NCBI RefSeq assembly: GCF_002159945.1 | Contig: NZ_NFJQ01000010.1 | Span: 1 to 64,000 of the forward strand | From: Cloacibacillus sp. An23 | Lineage (GTDB): Bacteria > Synergistota > Synergistia > Synergistales > Synergistaceae | Length of the DNA: 64,000 nucleotides | Direction: 5' to 3' | Shown: positions 50,766-59,395 of the stretch, piece by piece | Position numbering within the stretch: position 1 is the first letter of the stretch | Layout: every line of letters starts with the position of its first letter | Notes under the pieces: model-generated | Seen by the model: the letters and a program-made list of their open reading frames with translations, nothing else | Told to the model about the DNA's origin: nothing | Databases searched by the model: none | Program-made: the position numbers and the translations under genes

Positions 50766-53700
50766 TTACTCACTATACGCACTTGTCCGCACGCCCGCGG
50801 CGTTGTCGCGTACGCTCTTGATTGCGGCAAGCAGCGCGGTCCGCCTGCCGGCGTCGAAAAGTTTGACGAAGCTCACGGGCTTGTCGAACGGCGGCTTTTG
50901 AAGCTCTGCGCCCTCGATATATCCGTTCTGCTCTATATAGCTGATGATTTTGCGTATAAAAGTTATCTGGTTCTGATTCAGCGACTGGTCGTCGATGAAC
51001 GCGGAAAACGCCTTCATCGCCGCCTCGTGATCGAGCTTCGCTATGCGCCGCACGAGAAGGCCGAAGGGCGTCTCTCCGTATTCGCGCCTGTAATCCTCGG
51101 CGCTGCCGAGTTCGACGGTCAGGATGCGTTCCAGCGTACCGTAGTCCTCCGCCGTCAGCGGCAGGTTGTGCGTCAGCTTATGGATAGCAGGAATGTCCGC
51201 GTGCTCGTTGATATAGCGGTTCACCTTAGCGCGGTAGTTCTCGAAATCATACGGCTCGCCGAGCGGCTCTCCCTCGCGCCGTTCAAGCACCGGGTCGGCG
51301 AGCTTCGTCACCACGAGCCTGCGCTCGTCGCCGCCGTCGTCGAGGAACTTGATAAGCTCGCGCAGTTCGCGCCGCGCCTTTTCAAAGATCAAAATATCCC
51401 CCGCCGCCCAAAATTCCTCCGTTCCTATTTCGCGGATAAAATCAAGCTTCTCGGCTATCTGAGGTATGCTCGCCCTGCGTTCCAGCGCCGAGGCTACGGA
51501 GCAGAGCTGCGCCTTCGCGCGGCGGAAAGCCGGGGAATTTTCGATGCGCGCGAGCATCAGGCCGTACATGAAATTATCGAAGCGGCCCGCCATTTCGTCG
51601 CGCCCGTCGCCGCAGACGAGCGGCGCGACGTACAGCGTCAGCTCGTGCCTGTCCTCGTCGCCGATATGGACGAACGCCTCCTCGCGCTTATATTTTTCGA
51701 CGTAGCGCCTGCGCAGCCGCACGCTCGCAAGATTCGTATTCAGAGCCGCCACCTGCTCGCGGCAGCCTTCCGCAAGCTCGCGCCGCCAGTTACGGAAATC
51801 TTCGTCCGAATACGCGCCGTCCTCGAGAGCGGCGCAAAGGCGTATCCGTTTGCAGAAAACGCTCTCCGCGAGCGACTTCGTCTCGCGCCCTTCGTATCCT
51901 TCCTTGTGCGCGCGGAAATATTCGAAATTCCCGCAGTAGTCGAAAATTATAAAACGGCGCTTGTCAGTGTACTCGCCGTCAATATTGTCTACGCAGCCGA
52001 GCCCTTTGCAGAGCCGCGTGCCGCGCCCTATCATCTGCCAGAATTTCGTTTTCGAGCGAACTTTCTTGAAAAATACGAGATTCACGGCTTCCGGCACGTC
52101 TATGCCCGTGTCCATCATATCGACGGAAACGGCGATGTGAGGCTCCCTGTCCGCGATTTTAAAATCGTCTATGACCTTCTGCGCGTATGCGTCGGCGCAG
52201 ACCGCGCGCTGCGCGAATCCGCCCTTCAGCCGTGGATAAAGCTTGTTGAAGCGCTGTATGATAAACTCCGCGTGTCTGGTGTTCTGCGCGAAAATAATGG
52301 TCTTGCCTATGCGGTCGCCTCCCGCCGTGCGTATGCCGTTCTCCATCAGATCCTGCAAAACGGCGTCGCACGTCTCCTCGTTGAAGACGAACCTGTTGAG
52401 CTGCGCGGAGGGTATAAAATCAGGCATTGAGCCGTCGTCCTCCGCGAAATCCTCTTCGTAGCGCTCTTTATCCTCTTCGGAAAGGTCGTCGTAGGTTATC
52501 CCCTCTTCGAGGAACTTCGTCCTGACCTCGTAATTGTAGTACGGCACGAGCACCTTGTCCGTATTCACCGCCGTCTCGTAGTCGTATGCGTAAGTCGGCA
52601 CGCCGTGCTCCATTTCGAAAAAGTCGTAGGTGTTGCGGTCAACGTCGGTCTTCGGCGTCGCGGTAAGGCCGACGAGCGCCGCGTCGAAATATTCGAAAAT
52701 AGCGCGGTATTTCTTGAAAATGCTCCTATGGCTCTCGTCAATGATGATAAGGTCGAAATGCGCGGGAGTGAAAAGCCGCCGCCCGTCCTCCGTCTTCGCC
52801 GAGTCTATCGCGTTCAGCATCGTCGGATAGGTCGAAAAGACTATGCGCGCCTCTTTGTCGTCCCTGTTTGAGCAGAGATTGCAGAGCGACATATCCGGCA
52901 GGTAATTCTTGAAATCGTCCTTCGCCTGCTTCACGAGCGCCACACGGTCGGCGAGGAACAGGACGTTCGTCACGTAACCGCCGCGGCTCAGCACGTCCGT
53001 GAGGCTCGACGCCGTGCGCGTCTTTCCCGTCCCCGTCGCCATCACCAGCAGATGCCTGCGCGCGCCGCGCTCTATCTGCGCGCAGACGGCGCGTATCGCC
53101 TCCTTCTGGTAATAGCGGTCGGTGATTTTGTCGTCTATCTTTATTTCAGAAAGCGGGCGGCGCTCCGCCCTGCGGTCGATCAGCTTCTGCAGATCGCCGG
53201 GCGAGAATATCCCGCTCACACGACGCTGCGGCGCGCTCATGTCGTCCCAGAAATACGTGTCGAAGCCGTTCGTCGTAAAAATCACCGGCCTCCGCCCGAA
53301 TTTCCGTTCGAGCGCATCGGCGTAGAGCTTCGCCTGCGTGCGTCCCGCGTTCGCATCGCGGCTCGCGCGCTTCGCCTCCACGACGGCGAGCGGCAGCCCG
53401 TCGCGCCCGAAAAGCACGTAGTCGGCGAATCCGGCCTGCCCAGGAACGCCGGCCATATCCGCGACTTCGTATTCCTCCGCGACGTTAGCGCCCGGGCCGG
53501 AAAACGTCCATCCGGCCTCCTTCATATCCACGTCTATGTAAATCTTGCGCGTGCGGAACTCGGAAATATCCTCCGGCTCGAACCTGCGCGTTTCGCGGTG
53601 CGCTTCCTTCTCTGCGGTATAGCGCGCGGACATCGCGCGAATCTGTCCGAGAAGCTCTTCGATACGCGCATCCTTCTCGGCGAGCAGCCGCTCGCCCTCC

Positions 53701-54155
53701 GCGGCCCTCTTTTCCGCCTCCGCGCCGCGAGATGCGGGAATCCGACTTGCGTCGAAACTCCGTTCCTCGTAGTCCGCGCCGTAGCAGTAATCTATCCATT
53801 CCACGAACTCGAAGAGCGCGCGCAGCGAAGCGAGCGCTTCCTCATGAGTCACGCCGCGCCCCGTGTGTACCGCGAGATTGCCGAGCTTCACGATAAAAGG
53901 CAGCCTCCCCCACACTTTTTCATCGACTGCGCCGCGGAAAGTGTACTCGTGGATCAGCGACTGCAAATTATCGCGGTAGGGCATTTTCATCGTCTTGTCC
54001 GCCGCGTATACCCACTTCACCGCAAGCTCGAGCGCCTTGCGGCACCCCACGGCGCAAAGCGCGGGAGAGGCCGCGAGAATATTTTCCGCCTCGGCGCAGG
54101 CCGCGGCGAAAAGCGAATATTCGGGCTTTTGCTCTAAAAATGTGAAGTTGGGCAT
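50766..54155 (-). CDS. hsdR: Type I restriction enzyme R subunit
   Basis: An intact 1129-residue HsdR. The N-terminal 130 residues look like a DUF4145 domain (AVGCRKALELAVKWVYAAD) followed by a coiled coil. The PD-(D/E)XK nuclease has GFADYVLF (Asp about 245) and VVEAKR (Glu-x-Lys 260-262). The translocase has Walker A MATGTGKT at about 372-379, DESH at 473-476, GLTATPKTD and QMIGRGTRL. An EcoEI-type C-terminal domain completes it. It needs HsdM/HsdS, which look broken here. It follows the RelA/SpoT-domain gene by 15 bases. Confidence 0.95.
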   Translation of the reverse strand: MPNFTFLEQKPEYSLFAAACAEAENILAASPALCAVGCRKALELAVKWVYAADKTMKMPYRDNLQSLIHEYTFRGAVDEKVWGRLPFIVKLGNLAVHTGRGVTHEEALASLRALFEFVEWIDYCYGADYEERSFDASRIPASRGAEAEKRAAEGERLLAEKDARIEELLGQIRAMSARYTAEKEAHRETRRFEPEDISEFRTRKIYIDVDMKEAGWTFSGPGANVAEEYEVADMAGVPGQAGFADYVLFGRDGLPLAVVEAKRASRDANAGRTQAKLYADALERKFGRRPVIFTTNGFDTYFWDDMSAPQRRVSGIFSPGDLQKLIDRRAERRPLSEIKIDDKITDRYYQKEAIRAVCAQIERGARRHLLVMATGTGKTRTASSLTDVLSRGGYVTNVLFLADRVALVKQAKDDFKNYLPDMSLCNLCSNRDDKEARIVFSTYPTMLNAIDSAKTEDGRRLFTPAHFDLIIIDESHRSIFKKYRAIFEYFDAALVGLTATPKTDVDRNTYDFFEMEHGVPTYAYDYETAVNTDKVLVPYYNYEVRTKFLEEGITYDDLSEEDKERYEEDFAEDDGSMPDFIPSAQLNRFVFNEETCDAVLQDLMENGIRTAGGDRIGKTIIFAQNTRHAEFIIQRFNKLYPRLKGGFAQRAVCADAYAQKVIDDFKIADREPHIAVSVDMMDTGIDVPEAVNLVFFKKVRSKTKFWQMIGRGTRLCKGLGCVDNIDGEYTDKRRFIIFDYCGNFEYFRAHKEGYEGRETKSLAESVFCKRIRLCAALEDGAYSDEDFRNWRRELAEGCREQVAALNTNLASVRLRRRYVEKYKREEAFVHIGDEDRHELTLYVAPLVCGDGRDEMAGRFDNFMYGLMLARIENSPAFRRAKAQLCSVASALERRASIPQIAEKLDFIREIGTEEFWAAGDILIFEKARRELRELIKFLDDGGDERRLVVTKLADPVLERREGEPLGEPYDFENYRAKVNRYINEHADIPAIHKLTHNLPLTAEDYGTLERILTVELGSAEDYRREYGETPFGLLVRRIAKLDHEAAMKAFSAFIDDQSLNQNQITFIRKIISYIEQNGYIEGAELQKPPFDKPVSFVKLFDAGRRTALLAAIKSVRDNAAGVRTSAYSE

Positions 54156-54170
54156 ATGTATTACCCTTTC

Positions 54171-55205
54171 TTATTTATTGTATTTTCTTATCAACCTGTT
54201 TAATGCATTTGTAAACTCTTTAATATCTGCAAAATAATTGGGGTAAGCATGAGTCAAAGCATCAAAGGACTGCGCTGAGACCAAAACAATATCCAGTTTT
54301 TTTGCTCCATTTTGCAATTCTAATTTATTATATTCTTCTGTTGCTTTCTCAATTCCGCTAAAGCGATTAACTTTTAACAATGCATCGTTCACATCTAGTG
54401 CAAGCAAATAATATCCGGGGTTTTGACTTTTTGTAGTACGAGGTATATATGATGTTGCAAGTCCAATTGTATAAAGCTTATTAATAACTTCAAGTTCTTT
54501 CATTATTGCCATCAATTCAGCTACTACAACTTTTGCGTCTGTTGAAATACCTTCCACAACCTTTGTACCTTCTTGTATAGAAAATATCGCAGAGACAACT
54601 TTAAAAAACCTTAACCAGCGTTCTGACCCTTGGTTGAATTTTAACCCGTTTTGTGTAAATATGCCAACGGTCTCTACAGCAGTAGCCCACAAATGTTGTA
54701 GTTTGGTTCTTAATTGTATTTCAACTAGTAATCCATTATAGTCGTTTCTTTTATCGCTTCTGTACTTATATATGAGATGAATTCCTCTATAACCAGTCTC
54801 ATTTTTAGGCAACGCAATATAATCTTTCTCGTTATGTAACTCATGACGAATACGTGAATTTTGTAGTTTTTCTTTTACAGCATATACTGCGTTTACATTA
54901 GGAAGTATTGCACGGCATCCCCCCAAATCTTGCATACGATATAATTGCATTTCAGGAAAGCGTTGTATTTTACCAATAATAGTTTCTAACCTTTTAAGAC
55001 GTTGAACAACTATGGCACCTTTTATACCATCAATTTGATGTTTCAAGTTAATTGCGAATGTGTTCATTGGAAATGCATGCGCAGCTCGCCAATTATCTAT
55101 TATTTGTAAACATTCTTGAAGCTCTTGCCCTTGGGCATGTCCAGAAGCGATTTTATTACCGGCGGTATTTATTTGTTTCTTAGTATATTCAACAGTTTTC
55201 CACAT
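54171..55205 (-). CDS. RelA/SpoT-domain protein inside a type I R-M operon
   Basis: A 344-residue protein. The nucleotidyltransferase core is complete by eye: QRLKRLETIIGK (about 68-79), YRMQDLGGCRAI (89-100), DYIALPK and TGYRGIH (128-143), VEIQLRT (161-167) and HLWATAVE. The catalytic Glu of the EIQxRT motif is present. There is no HD hydrolase or TGS domain. The C-terminal 160 residues are unassigned. The start codon overlaps the hsdS stop (TAATG) and hsdR follows 15 bases on. The gene is strikingly AT-rich against its neighbours, so recently acquired. It could be a small alarmone synthetase, a toxic (p)ppApp-type enzyme or a tRNA pyrophosphokinase. Confidence 0.85.
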   Translation of the reverse strand: MWKTVEYTKKQINTAGNKIASGHAQGQELQECLQIIDNWRAAHAFPMNTFAINLKHQIDGIKGAIVVQRLKRLETIIGKIQRFPEMQLYRMQDLGGCRAILPNVNAVYAVKEKLQNSRIRHELHNEKDYIALPKNETGYRGIHLIYKYRSDKRNDYNGLLVEIQLRTKLQHLWATAVETVGIFTQNGLKFNQGSERWLRFFKVVSAIFSIQEGTKVVEGISTDAKVVVAELMAIMKELEVINKLYTIGLATSYIPRTTKSQNPGYYLLALDVNDALLKVNRFSGIEKATEEYNKLELQNGAKKLDIVLVSAQSFDALTHAYPNYFADIKEFTNALNRLIRKYNK

Positions 55206-56140
55206 TATTCTACAACCTCTATGTCAGCACAAAAATATTTTTGCATTAACAACTTCCTTAACATGCTAAGTGTATCAAAGCCTTTTTGGACATTCAACAT
55301 AATGCCATTAATATACTTAACAAAACGAGAATATTGTTTTTGCAATTCCATTGGTGGTAATGGAATTGTAATTTCTCGTGCTTTTTGTATTCCAAATGCA
55401 GGTTGCGATGTAGATTTCATTCCCAATTCAATGATATGTTCTTCTAAGATCTCTTTTCCTACCATTCTAGCTTTATTAAAATTTATACGATACATATTAT
55501 AGTCACATTCAGTAAGCCCGATATATGGAATACCATTTTGTGAAAATGGAGGTGTTCTGTGACTCGGATGCGGGTCTACTATTTCGGCAATCTCACTAAG
55601 CTGGTGTTTTTGCCATTTTTTTCATCAAGTGAAACATCTCCAAACATCTCGACAAATTTGGATTTTACGAGTTCGTCGAGCTTGTCGAGCTGGCGGCGGC
55701 GTTTGGCTGTCAGTTCGCTGACTTTATGCAATTTTGCGCTGTTCATTGAGCGGCGGAAGCGGAATCTCCATTTTGCGCATATCAGCCTGCGTCAACTTTT
55801 TGCGCGTTGCACCGTTGACTAATCCAGACACGTCATAAAACATCAAAGAATAACATAGATAATCAACATCAACGCAATCTTTTGGTTTGAGAACATGCGC
55901 ATGGTTATTTACCCAACATTTTCCAGAGACACGATAGGCTATCGGCTTGTCTTTTGAGCCCAAATTACCGCCGTCTTCTGCCAATAGTACTAATTCGTCG
56001 TCGAATATATAATCATCAACGTAATCTTGAACGCCGTTTGCGCCATAATACGGATAAGGGCCGGGCTTACGGTCTGACGCCGTTATTGGCACGCGCTGGC
56101 TGTCTAAAATTTCGCAAATGTCCCCCAGCCTCCCCCTCAC
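55205..56140 (-). pseudogene. hsdS: Type I specificity subunit, interrupted by two frame changes
   Basis: Three pieces. The first (56140-55724) has TRD1, MRGRLGDICEILDSQRVP, to PLPPLNEQRKIA then TAA. The next frame (about 55725-55579) carries KVSELTAKRRRQLDKLDELV and FVEMFGD. The third (about 55640-55205) carries WQKHQLSEIAEIVDPHP, YIGLTECDYNMYRINFN and IPLPPMELQKQYSRFVKYIN. Join one lacks about 11 bases where relatives read IAAILDKVS. Join two sits at an A7 tract (55616-55622); one more A would restore the frame. TRD2 is AT-rich. Confidence 0.88.
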
Positions 56141-57663
56141 AGCATTTCCTCCAATTCCGCGAGCCCCGACGTTATTTCCATTTCGAGCTCGTGAAGTTCC
56201 GCCATTATCTGCTCGGTCGGCGGGTAGTCGACGGGTTTGTATTCGACTTTTTTGTATTTGTTGACGGAGAGGTCGTAATCGTTTTCGGCGATCTCTTCCT
56301 TCGGCACGAGGAAGCTCTGTTCGGTGCGCTCGCGCGCCGCCTCTTGGTCGAGATTTCGGAAGCGCTCTACTATGTCAGGGATGTCGTTTTCGTCCGCGGG
56401 CGCGCGTTTGTCGTCGAGCGTGAAGCCGTCGGCCTTCATGTCGTAGAACCAGACCTTATCCGTGCCGCCCGCTCCGGTCTTGGTGAAGACGAGGACGGCG
56501 GTCGACACGCCGGAGTACGGTTTGAATACGCCCGACGGCATAGATATGACGGCGCGCAGCTGATGGTTCTCGACGAGCTCGCGGCGCAGTGTCCTGTGCG
56601 CCTTCGACGAGCCGAAGAGCACGCCGTCGGGCACGATGCAGGCACACCGCCCGCCTTTGCGCAGCATCCGCAGGAAGAGCGCGACGAAGAGCAGCTCGGT
56701 CTTTTTCGTGTTCGCCGCGGCCTTGAGGCTGTCGCTTATGCTCTCGGCGTCCACCGTTCCCGTGAAGGGCGGATTTGCGAGGCAGAGGGTGAATTTGTCG
56801 CTTATGCCGTTCTGTTTGGAAACGCTGTCTTTGTAGTCTATTTCGGGCCGCGTTACGGAGTGGAGCATGAGGTTCATCGCGGAGATGCGCAGCATCGTCC
56901 TGTCGGTGTCGAAGCCGGTGAAGGCCGGCCCTTCGAAGCGCTCCCACTGCTCCGCCGTCATTTCGCTTTCGTAATGGGCGCGTATGTATTCCGAAGCGGA
57001 GACGAGGAAGCCCGCCGTGCCGCAGGCGGGGTCGCAAATAACGTCGTCGGGCGTGGGGCGCGTGAGCTCCACCATCATGTCGCGTATGTGCTTCGGCGTG
57101 CGGAACTGCCCGTTGTGGCCAGCGGTGGAGAGTTTGCCGAGCATGTATTCGTAGAGGTCGCCCTGCATGTCGAGCCCCGTCAGGTCGTGTTCGTACAGGT
57201 CGTCGAGCCCCGTTATTATTTTCTGGAGAACCTGCGGCGTGGGAATGAGAAACATTGCGTCGCTCATGTAGCGCGCGAAAGCTCCGTTGTCCTCCGCGCC
57301 CGTGTCGCCGCGGATTTCTATAAGTTCGCCGCGTTCGTCGAAGTCCGGCAGACGTCCGCCCCGCATCGCTTTTATAGCGGGAAAGACGCGGCGCGAGACG
57401 ACGTCGTATATTTCGCGCGGGTCTCTGTTTTTGAAGCGGCTCCAGCGCATCGACTGCCCCGCCTCAGACTGCGGAAATATGCGCGGCATCGCCCCGCCGC
57501 CCGCGTTTTCCATTTCTTCCGCTTCGAGCTCCTTTTCGTCGAGCGAGCGTATGAACATCAGATACGTGAGCTGTTCTATGACGGTCAGAGGATTGGTTAT
57601 CCCGCCCGCCCAGATGTCCGTCTATATTTTATCGACTTTGTTTTTTATGACGCCTGTGATCAA
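56137..57663 (-). pseudogene. hsdM: Type I methyltransferase subunit with amber codon near its start
   Basis: The full frame starts at a TTG (57663) overlapping the upstream stop and reads LITGVIKNKVDKI, TAG (57622-57624), TDIWAGGITNPLTVIEQL, then the intact rest. Relatives have Trp at the stop position, so TGG to TAG is the likely change. Downstream motifs are intact: VICDPACGTAGFLVS (SAM site) and LCLANPPFTG (catalytic NPPF). Re-initiation at the ATG at 57558 would give 473 residues lacking the N-terminal helices that grip partner and DNA. Confidence 0.85.
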
Positions 57664-58001
57664 TTGCGAGGCTCCTTCCCGTCCGCCGCGTTTTCGTTCG
57701 CTTTATCCGCGCCGCCGTCCCTGTCAAAATCCGTTATAGCGAGAGTTTTTCCCAAAGCGAGGAGAACGTTGATAACTGTTTCAAACTTGGGTTCTTTCTC
57801 CCACCCGGCAAGTTTTTTTATTTTTGATTTCTTTACGCCTGTCTTTTTTGCAATATCTTTTATCTTTACGCCTTTGTCGCGCGCTTTGACGAGCTCCTGC
57901 ATGACGGCGACTCTGATATTGCTGGCCGCTATTTCTTCCGGCGTAAAGATTTTACGTTCAAACTCCTCGTCCCATACTAAAAAGCCGTTTTTATATGTCA
58001 T
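57660..58001 (-). CDS. HTH regulator heading the type I R-M operon
   Basis: A 113-residue protein from the ATG at 58001, which overlaps the rlmD stop (ATGA). The HTH is VKIKDIAKKTGVKKSKIKKL followed by AGWEKEPKFETVINVLLALG, like XRE/HigA antitoxin-type regulators. No toxin partner is adjacent. Its own stop overlaps the hsdM TTG. It may be a controller protein delaying restriction, by analogy with C proteins; that is inference. Confidence 0.72.
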   Translation of the reverse strand: MTYKNGFLVWDEEFERKIFTPEEIAASNIRVAVMQELVKARDKGVKIKDIAKKTGVKKSKIKKLAGWEKEPKFETVINVLLALGKTLAITDFDRDGGADKANENAADGKEPRN

Positions 58002-59395
58002 TGGTCTGTCTCCACCTGTTCCGATGCGCCGGTTACTCCTTTGCGCATCAGAGCGACCGTTTCCACGTGCCCAGTCTGGGGGAACATGTCGAACGGCGCG
58101 GCTTCCGCGAGTTTGTAGCCTCCGGCGGCGAGGCGCTTGGCGTCGCGGGCCAGGGTGGCGGGGTTGCATGATACGTAGACGACGCGCTCGGGGGATATTT
58201 TTAGTATTGCGTCTGTTACTTTTTCGTCACAGCCGGTGCGCGGAGGGTCGAGCACAACCGTGTCGAAGTTCCGCGCGCTTAGTTCTTCGGCAAGGTCCTC
58301 GGCCTGCGCGGTATAAGGTTCAATATTGTCAAGCCCGTTTTGCGCGGCGTTCTGTTTTATGTATTTCGCAGCCGGCTGCCAGCTTTCAACGGCTGTCACA
58401 TGGCGCGCGTGCGCGGCGAGAAAGGCGGTCAGGCTTCCGACGCCGGAGTAGAGTTCGAGAATTTTCCGCGCGCCGCCTTCCACGGCAAGCGCGGCAGCGC
58501 GGCGGTACAGAGCAAGCGTTTGTTCCGAATTTACCTGAAAGAAGGACGATGCCTCGAAAGTAAACGAATATTCGCCAAGTTTTTCCGTTATAGTGGGTTT
58601 CCCGTAAATCGTAATAGTTTTTTCGCCCCAGATGAAGTTGCCGTGGTTCGGGTTCACGTTGTAGACGAGGCCGGTCAGCCCTTTGATTCCGGCTGCGGCT
58701 TCCGTCAGGAGCGAAGTCTCTTTTTTCGAGAGCGGCCTTGAGCCGATGACTGCGCATAGTTTTTCACCTGTGAAGCGGGCCTGGCGCATTACGACGTGGC
58801 GCACGAGTCCAGATGCGGGGCCGCCCTTTTCGCGCACTCCGCGGAAGCCGCGTTCGCGCAGCGCATAGGCGATTTTTTTCACGCCATCGTCTATCCCGGA
58901 AAGCAGCACGGGACAGCCGCGGTATGGCACTATTTCGTGGCTGCGCGTTTTGTAGAAGCCGGAGACGAAGTTTTCACCGCGCGCGGACTGCACGGGCAGC
59001 GAGGCTTTATTTCTGTAGTTCCACTCGGACGGCGACGGCACGCACTGCGCGACGGGAGGTTTGTCGAATCCTCCGATGCGCCGCAGCGCCTCTTCGACCG
59101 TTCTGTGTTTCATCGCAAGCTGTTCTTCGTACGAAATGTGCTGAAGCTGGCAGCCACCGCAGCGCCCGAATAGCGGGCAGCGCGGATTTACCCGCGCAGG
59201 CGAATCGCCGCCGCGACTCAGCACTTTCGCCACGCCGTAGTTTTTCTTTTTCGTTACGAGGCGCACTTCCGCGCTTTCTCCGGGCAGCGCGCCCGGCACG
59301 AAGAGGACGAAGCCCTCGTCTCCGGCGCGGACGACGCCTTCGCCTTCGTTGTTGAGTCCCGTTATAGTTACGTTTAATATATCTCCCTGTCTCAT
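57998..59395 (-). CDS. rlmD: 23S rRNA (uracil-5-)-methyltransferase, RlmD/RumA family
   Basis: A 465-residue enzyme. An N-terminal TRAM domain (LNVTITGLNNEGEGVVRAGD) leads to a four-Cys iron-sulfur site (NPRCPLFGRCGGCQLQHISY plus one). The SAM domain has ILELYSGVGSLTAFLA and VVLDPPRTGCDEKV, and the catalytic Cys is in VVYVSCNPATLARDAKRLA. It methylates U in 23S rRNA; whether position 1939, 747 or both cannot be read from sequence. It is the first gene of the chain leading into the R-M genes. Confidence 0.92.
   Translation of the reverse strand: MRQGDILNVTITGLNNEGEGVVRAGDEGFVLFVPGALPGESAEVRLVTKKKNYGVAKVLSRGGDSPARVNPRCPLFGRCGGCQLQHISYEEQLAMKHRTVEEALRRIGGFDKPPVAQCVPSPSEWNYRNKASLPVQSARGENFVSGFYKTRSHEIVPYRGCPVLLSGIDDGVKKIAYALRERGFRGVREKGGPASGLVRHVVMRQARFTGEKLCAVIGSRPLSKKETSLLTEAAAGIKGLTGLVYNVNPNHGNFIWGEKTITIYGKPTITEKLGEYSFTFEASSFFQVNSEQTLALYRRAAALAVEGGARKILELYSGVGSLTAFLAAHARHVTAVESWQPAAKYIKQNAAQNGLDNIEPYTAQAEDLAEELSARNFDTVVLDPPRTGCDEKVTDAILKISPERVVYVSCNPATLARDAKRLAAGGYKLAEAAPFDMFPQTGHVETVALMRKGVTGASEQVETDQ

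What the first reader, a model, noticed from the sequence alone, without database searches (positions are those of the whole stretch)
54171..55205. RelA/SpoT-domain gene inserted between hsdS and hsdR of a type I restriction locus
Seen: the RelA/SpoT core motifs are complete, the ATG overlaps the hsdS stop (TAATG), hsdR starts 15 bases downstream, and the gene is AT-rich in a GC-rich locus. Known: toxic small alarmone synthetases (toxSAS, CapRel) act as abortive-infection effectors. Inference: this protein may be a second-line effector that responds when restriction is evaded or lost, or a passenger moved with the AT-rich TRD2. Its 160-residue C-terminal part has no family I recognise and could be a sensor or self-inhibiting domain.
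Basis: partly seen in the sequence, partly recalled or inferred. Interest (0 to 1): 0.85.

Follow-up and report, generated by a model that had tools for sequence, protein, structure and literature searches.

The report
Phage-sensing toxin inside restriction-enzyme operon
A bacterial gene sitting inside a DNA-restriction operon encodes a relative of CapRel, a self-restrained enzyme that stops protein synthesis when a virus infects, and the place where it sits turns out to be a swappable slot that holds many different, often defence-like, genes in related operons.

Summary
The protein is a full-length CapRel-family member (fused toxin-antitoxin toxSAS): 32% identity over 97% to CapRel of phage SJ46, crystal-structure match over residues 4-341 (Z 27.7), catalytic and YXXY residues identical. 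The "unrecognised" C-terminus is CapRel's antitoxin/sensor.

R-M linkage recurs: 12 of the 80 closest genome homologues lie in type I hsd operons; with the window they fall in one clade of 25 (13 of 25, 0 of 66 outside). One genome has CapRel and HsdR as a single 1483-aa ORF.

The place is a cargo slot: of 52 related operons with hsdM, hsdS and hsdR placed, 43 carry another ORF between hsdS and hsdR, among them AbiH, Abi_alpha, SIR2 and FRG. Close HsdR relatives carry different cargo.

Defence genes embedded in type I R-M are already published (PrrC, DarTG2, TgvAB), and PADLOC lists this family as PDC-S33. In the window hsdM and hsdS look broken; CapRel and hsdR are open. Most likely an autonomous, self-inhibited second line of defence; an R-M-triggered one is not excluded.

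The parts
54171..55205 (-). CapRel-family fused toxin-antitoxin (344 aa; PADLOC PDC-S33)
54606..55205 (-). toxSYNTH domain, about residues 1-200; R69, R98 (adenine clamp) and Y139 (G-loop) correspond to CapRel SJ46 R79, R116, Y155
   Evidence: residue map; published roles read in passages of PMC9712102; boundary set by eye
54171..54605 (-). C-terminal antitoxin/sensor region, about residues 201-344 (anchors and pseudo-zinc-finger)
   Evidence: full-length sequence and fold match to 7ztb/9erv; mean pairwise identity among 11 R-M-embedded copies (window included; L018 and L026 not in the set) 30% in anchor 1 and 38% in pseudo-ZFD against 53% in the toxin part
54234..54245 (-). YXXY neutralisation motif YPNY, Y321-Y324 (= Y352/Y355 of CapRel SJ46)
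   Evidence: role from PMC9712102 passages
50766..54155 (-). hsdR, 1129 aa, open; type IB-like (DUF4145, HSDR_N, ResIII, EcoEI_R_C)
55724..56140 (-). hsdS 5' part (TRD1), ends in a frame break
   Evidence: Methylase_S E 3e-24
55205..55621 (-). hsdS 3' part (TRD2) in another frame, AT-rich (GC 0.333); a conserved central stretch lies between in a third frame (55579-55791)
56137..57621 (-). hsdM, open from an in-frame stop at 57622-57624; first internal ATG gives 473 aa
   Evidence: N6_Mtase E 8e-61; the G185 relative (80% identical) reads through this point
57660..58169 (-). small HTH/antidote-like ORF upstream of hsdM, possible operon regulator (not followed up)
   Evidence: PF21716 E 1e-4, below its curated cut-off

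Best explanation
The gene is a CapRel-type fused toxin-antitoxin that sits as cargo in the hsdS-hsdR slot of a type IB-like restriction-modification operon and is probably read with it (shown: identity, full-length fold, catalytic and YXXY residues, start/stop overlap; co-transcription inferred). In the uninfected cell its C-terminal pseudo-zinc-finger docks on the synthetase and the YPNY motif fills the ATP site, so the protein keeps itself silent (inferred from CapRel SJ46, where this was tested). If a phage escapes or overwhelms restriction, a phage protein binds the variable sensor part, the protein opens, moves pyrophosphate from ATP to the 3' CCA end of tRNAs, and translation stops before phage are released (inferred from the family). 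The R-M enzyme is the first line and the cargo an independent second line; the slot lets the operon exchange its second line while hsdM and hsdR stay (shown: slot occupancy and cargo turnover; inferred: the benefit).
For: Full-length match to CapRel SJ46: tblastn 32% over 97%, E 2e-41; phmmer E 7e-42 over residues 5-339; AF2 model pLDDT 88, VIA-align Z 27.7, 291 residues, rmsd 3.4 A. R79, R116, Y155, V338, L339, A351, Y352, Y355 of SJ46 are identical here. The sensor part varies more than the toxin part among 11 R-M-embedded copies. Slot: 12 of 80 nearest genome homologues lie in hsd operons. The label is clustered (5 changes, shuffled mean 12.4, 0 of 500 as low), yet starred branches force at least 4 changes, and the backbones belong to different HsdR types (EcoEI_R_C in the window and L030; HSDR_N/T1R_D3 with T1RH-like_C in L032, L059, L064, L067, L068). 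Cargo turnover: 43 of 52 complete operons carry other ORFs there; of 20 tested one by one 15 have a Pfam family and 0 are Methylase_S. L244 and L245 share 87% hsdM and hsdR DNA but carry unrelated cargo; L315 has an HsdR 90% identical to L067's but no CapRel in the slot. CapRel and backbone disagree: window-L030 HsdR 69%, CapRel 43%; window-L013 HsdR 43%, CapRel 61%. Autonomy: for 68 of 80 nearest homologues no hsdM, hsdS or Pfam-confirmed HsdR was detected nearby; the window's hsdM and hsdS look broken while CapRel is open.
Against: No activity, trigger or phage phenotype can be tested here. Two of the SJ46 interface residues whose change made it toxic differ (A77 is V67, A341 is S310), and part of the SJ46 alpha9 sensor helix is gapped. 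The CapRel::HsdR single ORF hints at physical coupling with the R-M enzyme, which full autonomy does not need. Expression in this organism is unknown. The hsdM/hsdS lesions rest on one assembly.
Confidence: 0.7

Rival explanations
1. PrrC-like guard: the R-M complex, through HsdR, holds or triggers the CapRel protein, so that an anti-restriction factor or loss of restriction releases the toxin.
For: One genome encodes CapRel and HsdR as a single 1483-aa ORF, with the CapRel sensor end joined to the HsdR N-terminal DUF4145 region. PrrC, embedded in the EcoprrI operon, works this way (passages of PMC3874165, PMC2610378, PMC12707154). The genes overlap or nearly abut in several R-M loci.
Against: The fusion was seen in 1 of 396 genomes searched in that family, no second fusion was found among the 64 operon regions, and it rests on one metagenome-assembled genome whose hsdM lies on another contig. 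The self-neutralising YXXY motif is intact. In the window hsdM and hsdS look broken while CapRel is open, hard to square with silencing by an intact MTase. Cargo with quite different domains uses the same slot.
Confidence: 0.15
2. Passenger: the gene moved in with an exchanged hsdS 3' half or by chance and has no link in function with R-M, or no function at all in this host.
For: GC of the hsdS 3' half (0.333) matches CapRel (0.342), both far from hsdM/hsdR. In blastn of the window with three of the four operons tried, only about 100-150 bp in the middle of hsdS and the hsdR gene from about its start align besides hsdM, as homologous exchange of a TRD2-plus-cargo segment would leave. The window's hsdM and hsdS look degraded.
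Against: CapRel genes are AT-rich elsewhere too. CapRel recurs at this slot with different HsdR types and in Bacillota, Kiritimatiellota and Planctomycetota hosts, and the 12 R-M-embedded frames are open (in L032 the match runs over the stop at the end). Occupancy is 43 of 52, and part of the identified cargo is defence-related. The window frame is open with the catalytic residues.
Confidence: 0.11
3. Ordinary small alarmone synthetase (RelP/RelQ-like) making (p)ppGpp for stress control.
For: The synthetase domain also matches RelP and RelQ structures (Z about 15; phmmer E 1e-10).
Against: NCBIfam's YjbM equivalog scores 53 bits against a cut-off of 320. The full-length relatives with solved structures are CapRel, and the C-terminal antitoxin region with its YXXY motif is conserved.
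Confidence: 0.04

Closest known systems
CapRel SJ46 (Salmonella phage SJ46; PDB 7ztb, 9erv)
   Same: Full-length homology, same fold, same adenine-clamp arginines, G-loop tyrosine and YXXY motif, one fused ORF
   Different: 32% identity; part of sensor helix alpha9 gapped; A77/A341 replaced; lies inside a type I R-M operon, not a phage genome; trigger unknown
PADLOC PDC-S33 (phage defence candidate)
   Same: Model covers residues 2-341 at 402 bits; also hits SJ46 CapRel (E 3e-88) and the 12 R-M-embedded copies (1e-107 to 8e-119). At E 1e-30 it rings in 0 of 14 control genomes; at 1e-5 in 11 of 14, as other RelA/SpoT proteins then match
   Different: A candidate label only. Guilt-by-embedding origin of PDC families read in passages of PMC10855318 and PMC12988326; the source preprint (Payne 2024) is not held, so in which systems PDC-S33 was found embedded is not known here
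PrrC in the EcoprrI type I R-M operon
   Same: Translation-blocking effector gene embedded in an hsd operon (passages)
   Different: PrrC is an anticodon nuclease silenced by the R-M enzyme; this looks like a self-inhibited toxSAS
DarTG2 in the RptR island of enteropathogenic E. coli
   Same: Toxin-antitoxin embedded between hsdS and hsdR; authors call the site a potential recombination hotspot (passages of PMC12255303)
   Different: Two-gene DNA ADP-ribosylation system; other bacteria
rlo genes of Campylobacter jejuni; TgvAB of Vibrio cholerae VPI-2
   Same: Extra genes inside type I R-M operons (passages of PMC5183652 and PMC11411939)
   Different: No toxSAS is named for them in the passages seen; TgvAB is a type IV restriction pair

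Membership tests
CapRel (fused toxSAS) | RelA/SpoT synthetase domain with R79, R116 and G-loop Y155 | tested here: met
   R69, R98, Y139; PF04607 E 2.4e-16
CapRel (fused toxSAS) | C-terminal pseudo-zinc-finger antitoxin fused in the same ORF | tested here: met
   Model aligned over residues 4-341 to 7ztb_B, Z 27.7; phmmer 5-339
CapRel (fused toxSAS) | YXXY neutralisation motif | tested here: met
   YPNY, Y321/Y324
CapRel (fused toxSAS) | All mutated autoinhibition-interface residues kept | tested here: inconclusive
   R116, V338, L339, A351 identical; A77 is V67 and A341 is S310
CapRel (fused toxSAS) | Pyrophosphorylates tRNA 3' CCA and stops translation | not testable with these tools
   needs purified protein
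CapRel (fused toxSAS) | Switched on by a phage protein binding the antitoxin domain | not testable with these tools
   needs phage and binding assays
Defence gene embedded in a type I R-M operon | Lies between hsd genes, same strand, translationally close | tested here: met
   TAATG overlap with hsdS, 15 bases to hsdR; 12 of 80 homologue loci also in hsd operons
Defence gene embedded in a type I R-M operon | Surrounding R-M system functional | tested here: inconclusive
   hsdR open; hsdM stop and hsdS frame breaks in one assembly
PrrC-type R-M guard | Effector held silent by, and released from, the R-M complex | not testable with these tools
   indirect hint for: one CapRel::HsdR ORF; against: broken hsdM/hsdS with open CapRel
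RelQ small alarmone synthetase (YjbM) | NCBIfam equivalog score over cut-off | tested here: not met
   YjbM model 53.2 bits, cut-off 320
Type IB-like R-M (EcoEI/EcoAI group) | HsdR with EcoEI_R_C domain | tested here: met
   87.4 bits, cut-off 24
Type IB-like R-M (EcoEI/EcoAI group) | NCBIfam EcoAI/FtnUII HsdR equivalog over cut-off | tested here: not met
   263.6 bits, cut-off 550: same group, not that equivalog

The most novel reading that the evidence does not exclude
A CapRel branch has become a true part of type I R-M enzymes: the CapRel sensor end reads the state of HsdR (idle, translocating, or blocked by an anti-restriction protein), so the operon encodes a restriction enzyme with a built-in translation-killing fail-safe. 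The single CapRel::HsdR polypeptide is its covalent form. More widely, the hsdS-hsdR slot would be a dedicated effector bay into which type I systems plug exchangeable fail-safe effectors (AbiH, Abi_alpha, SIR2, FRG, kinase-like, TIR-like, CapRel).
Probability: 0.14. Interest if true: 0.8.

Novelty: new member of a known kind. Interest (0 to 1): 0.5.

Why it matters
CapRel SJ46 is an immune protein whose phage triggers are known, so finding a clade of its relatives inside restriction operons, once joined to HsdR in one ORF, makes the question [quoted passage not shown] directly testable. The slot survey adds scale: with the window's HsdR type, and in fewer loci with a second HsdR type, the position just before hsdR holds fast-changing cargo, so reading that position across genomes is a cheap way to list candidate defence effectors. 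It also separates gene identity (CapRel, known) from place (a reusable slot).

Tried and rejected
TRD2 hitchhiking as the sole cause: weakened by the GC control (R-M and non-R-M loci do not differ, p 0.21). Strict dependence on R-M: weakened by 68 of 80 homologues with no hsdM, hsdS or Pfam-confirmed HsdR detected nearby, by 9 plasmid loci and 1 phage locus with no hsdS or hsdR listed (L011 and L012 do list other DNA methylases), and by 1 of 80 viral contigs in an hsd operon (L107, same length as the L059 contig). Not counted as linked: L025, whose upstream neighbour hit the HsdR profile but is by Pfam a ResIII/DEAD helicase without HsdR domains, and viral contigs L126 and L139, with HsdR-like ORFs some 3-5 kb from CapRel and no HsdM or HsdS found. 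Second fusion candidate G1100 (open frame 1539): cargo and hsdR proved to be separate genes. Single-sequence structure prediction failed (pLDDT 38) and was replaced by the alignment-based model. Whether the model is in the closed state could not be measured, as no coordinates were at hand. Empty slot in the window's own genus: G124 has an HsdR 79% identical, but its contig ends 65 bp upstream. In the second structural look only residues 22-215 were broadly tested by other rows. In one search the HsdR stretches taken for L059 and L030 were out of frame; one search repeats the comparison with right ones.

Names given by eye and from no call: kinase-like (L315) and TIR/SEFIR-like (L316). Prior-art searches for toxSAS, CapRel or embedded genes with R-M. 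No title, abstract start or passage that I saw there places a CapRel or toxSAS gene inside an hsd operon; I read no paper whole, and bioRxiv preprints, supplements and most subscription papers were out of reach, so absence from print is not claimed.

Full report
WHAT IS THERE. The gene at 54171-55205 is on the minus strand and encodes 344 aa. Reading along that strand, the order is hsdM (to 56137), hsdS in pieces (56140-55205), this gene, then hsdR (54155-50766). The ATG overlaps the hsdS stop as TAATG and 15 bases separate it from hsdR. GC is 0.342 between hsdM and hsdR near 0.59. The gene occurs once in its own genome, and in the window's phylum only that genome matched: 1 of 185 genomes searched with PADLOC PDC-S33 at E 1e-30. 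It is therefore probably a recent arrival.

WHAT IT IS. Pfam sees only the RelA_SpoT core at residues 68-175, which explains why the C-terminus looked unknown. Full-length matches are PADLOC PDC-S33 (E 4.7e-121), PHROG 4773 and, in the PDB, 7ztb and 9erv (E 7e-42, residues 5-339). The best phage record is Salmonella phage SJ46 (32% over 97%), source of the CapRel of Zhang et al. 2022 (PMC9712102; passages seen). The SJ46 protein is 373 aa in L012, so published numbering applies: R79, R116, Y155, V338, L339, A351, Y352, Y355 correspond to R69, R98, Y139, V307, L308, A320, Y321, Y324, all identical; A77 and A341 are replaced. An AlphaFold2 model from 35 sequences has pLDDT 88 and pTM 0.79. Against solved structures 7ztb is first (Foldseek E 1e-22; VIA-align Z 27.7, 291 aligned, rmsd 3.4), well above RelP/RelQ (Z about 15). 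The 'unrecognised' C-terminus is thus the pseudo-zinc-finger antitoxin and its anchors.

IS THE R-M LINKAGE REAL. HsdM/HsdR/HsdS searches and Pfam checks place 12 of 80 in type I hsd operons. hsdS lies upstream and hsdR downstream of CapRel in L013, L014, L032, L042, L059, L064, L067 and L068 (in L013 a PIN gene and an AAA_14/DUF4143 gene share the interval; in L064 a 223-aa ORF does). The order is hsdM-hsdS-CapRel with an HsdR-like gene further upstream in L026 and L038. In L018 hsdS precedes CapRel and the contig ends soon after. In L030 CapRel and HsdR are one ORF. 75 of 80 loci have at least 1.5 kb upstream. On a tree of 91 rows (window, 80 genome loci, 9 plasmid loci, 1 phage) all 13 R-M rows fall in one clade of 25 (SH-aLRT 97), with 0 of 66 outside; the label needs 5 changes against a shuffled mean of 12.4 (0 of 500 as low) and starred branches force at least 4. 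HsdR in these loci is of different kinds: EcoEI_R_C (window, L030; L013 and L014 are homologous to it) and HSDR_N/T1R_D3 types, most with T1RH-like_C (L032, L042, L059, L064, L067, L068). So CapRel entered, or was kept in, the same slot on different backbones. Of the other 12 clade members, Pfam on ten neighbours from 7 loci gave Mrr_cat (L029), a C5 methylase (L035), AAA_15 (L020), a UvrD-like helicase (L016) and a phage integrase (L022), but also metabolic genes (L023) and no clear family (L024, one ORF each of L020 and L029).

THE FUSION. L030 holds one ORF of 1483 aa: CapRel (RelA_SpoT at 67-172, YPNY kept), a short linker, then HsdR (DUF4145 to EcoEI_R_C). No ribosome-binding-like stretch lies close before the internal HsdR ATG, while the window has one (by eye). 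hsdM of that genome is on another contig and 80% identical to the window's. A search of 396 genomes of that family with the junction found no second case. It remains one metagenome-assembled genome.

THE SLOT IS GENERAL. Searching with the window's HsdR (no CapRel involved) gave 11 of 183 genomes in the phylum and 43 of 394 in the order of the L030 genome; the junction search, through its HsdR half, added more. I took 64 operon regions (the L286 stretch was not counted). In 52 of 64, hsdM and hsdS could be placed upstream of hsdR. 43 of these 52 have at least one same-strand ORF of 100 aa or more, neither hsdS nor integrase, between hsdS and hsdR; 9 have none; for contrast the hsdM-hsdS gap reaches 300 bp in 12 of 52. 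hsdS was recognised by chained phmmer, so a divergent second hsdS could pass as cargo, and the operons are not all independent: L244/L302 and L311/L313 look like near copies by gene lengths. Of 36 upstream ORFs listed, 20 were tested singly (left out: 6 hsdS-like by eye, the L216 CapRel, and 9 others); 15 of 20 have a Pfam family: AbiH (3), Abi_alpha, SIR2_2, FRG, DUF4062, DUF4238, DUF2971, DUF559, DUF6161, DUF2806, NTase_sub_bind, HAD and Trypsin_2; none is Methylase_S. The 49 ORFs of the first set (3 of them integrases) match 31 Pfam families between them, none in more than 4 members among the 25 families shown, and 142 PADLOC models, among those shown AbiH, PDC-S31, PDC-S34, PDC-S47 and HEC-02.

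CARGO TURNOVER. Between operons, DNA aligns in hsdM, often in about 100-150 bp mid-hsdS, and in hsdR from about its start; TRDs and cargo mostly do not align (exceptions: L246 and L248 share a DUF2971-like cargo gene, L244 and L246 a longer hsdS stretch). L244 and L245 share 87% in hsdM and hsdR but carry DUF4238 plus three genes versus Abi_alpha. L315 has an HsdR 90% identical to L067's, alignable from the hsdR start, yet no CapRel in the slot. The window's HsdR is 69-72% identical to eight order members whose slots hold other genes, hsdS/integrase arrays or the fusion, and 79% to G124, whose slot is off the contig; its CapRel is nearest to L013 (61%), whose HsdR is only 43% identical. Three of the 64 regions (L248, L306 and, weakly, L283) carry a second copy of the hsdR 5' end next to cargo, a plausible footprint of insertion by recombination there (inference).

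HOW IT LIKELY WORKS. The family mechanism (self-inhibition by the YXXY motif, opening by a phage protein, tRNA pyrophosphorylation) is taken from PMC9712102 and PMC11578894 (passages). The window protein departs from it only in two interface residues and a partly gapped sensor helix among the positions I mapped. The window's hsdM frame has a stop at 57622-57624 and hsdS is in three frames, while CapRel and hsdR are open. If confirmed, a toxin silenced by the methylase complex would be unleashed here, so self-silencing fits better. Phage-protein triggering is therefore preferred over an R-M guard, at about 0.7 against 0.15.

PRIOR ART. Embedding in type I R-M operons is in print: PrrC in EcoprrI, DarTG2 between hsdS and hsdR, with the site called a potential hotspot, rlo genes, TgvAB, and a general trend (PMC12629846 passage); all seen as passages. 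PDC families come from guilt-by-embedding (passages). In ten searches I saw no listing or passage placing CapRel or a toxSAS there, but the key preprint is not held. Hence: new member of a known kind, with a possibly new variant (the fusion).

Noticed in passing
window 56137-57624 and 55205-56140 (-): hsdM carries an in-frame stop near its start and hsdS is split over three frames; intact relatives exist. Either decay of the R-M system or assembly error.
   Followed up: partly
window 57660-58169 (-): Small HTH/antidote-like ORF directly upstream of hsdM (PF21716 E 1e-4, below cut-off); could be an operon repressor like RptR.
   Followed up: no
L030 1754-6205: Single ORF joining CapRel and HsdR (1483 aa).
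   Followed up: yes
L248, L306 and, weakly, L283: Second, truncated copy of the hsdR 5' end beside cargo genes, a possible footprint of cargo insertion.
   Followed up: partly
L247, L251, L264 (and L275): Integrase genes (Pfam hits in 3 of 49 cargo ORFs) and extra, in L275 inverted, hsdS copies between hsdS and hsdR: likely invertible specificity arrays.
   Followed up: no
L067 3152-4888: One ORF carries both N6_Mtase and Methylase_S domains, a fused M-S protein beside the CapRel operon.
   Followed up: no
L013, L026, L038: PIN_12 (L013, L026) and AAA_14/DUF4143 (all three) genes recur in or beside the R-M operons that hold CapRel.
   Followed up: no
L016, L024, L062: CapRel copies outside R-M operons with a stop inside the matched frame, while the 12 R-M-embedded copies are open but for a stop at the end of the L032 match.
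   Followed up: no
L315, L316 upstream of hsdR: Kinase-like and TIR/SEFIR-like ORFs (by eye) in the slot of operons whose HsdR is 90% and 74% identical to L067's.
   Followed up: partly
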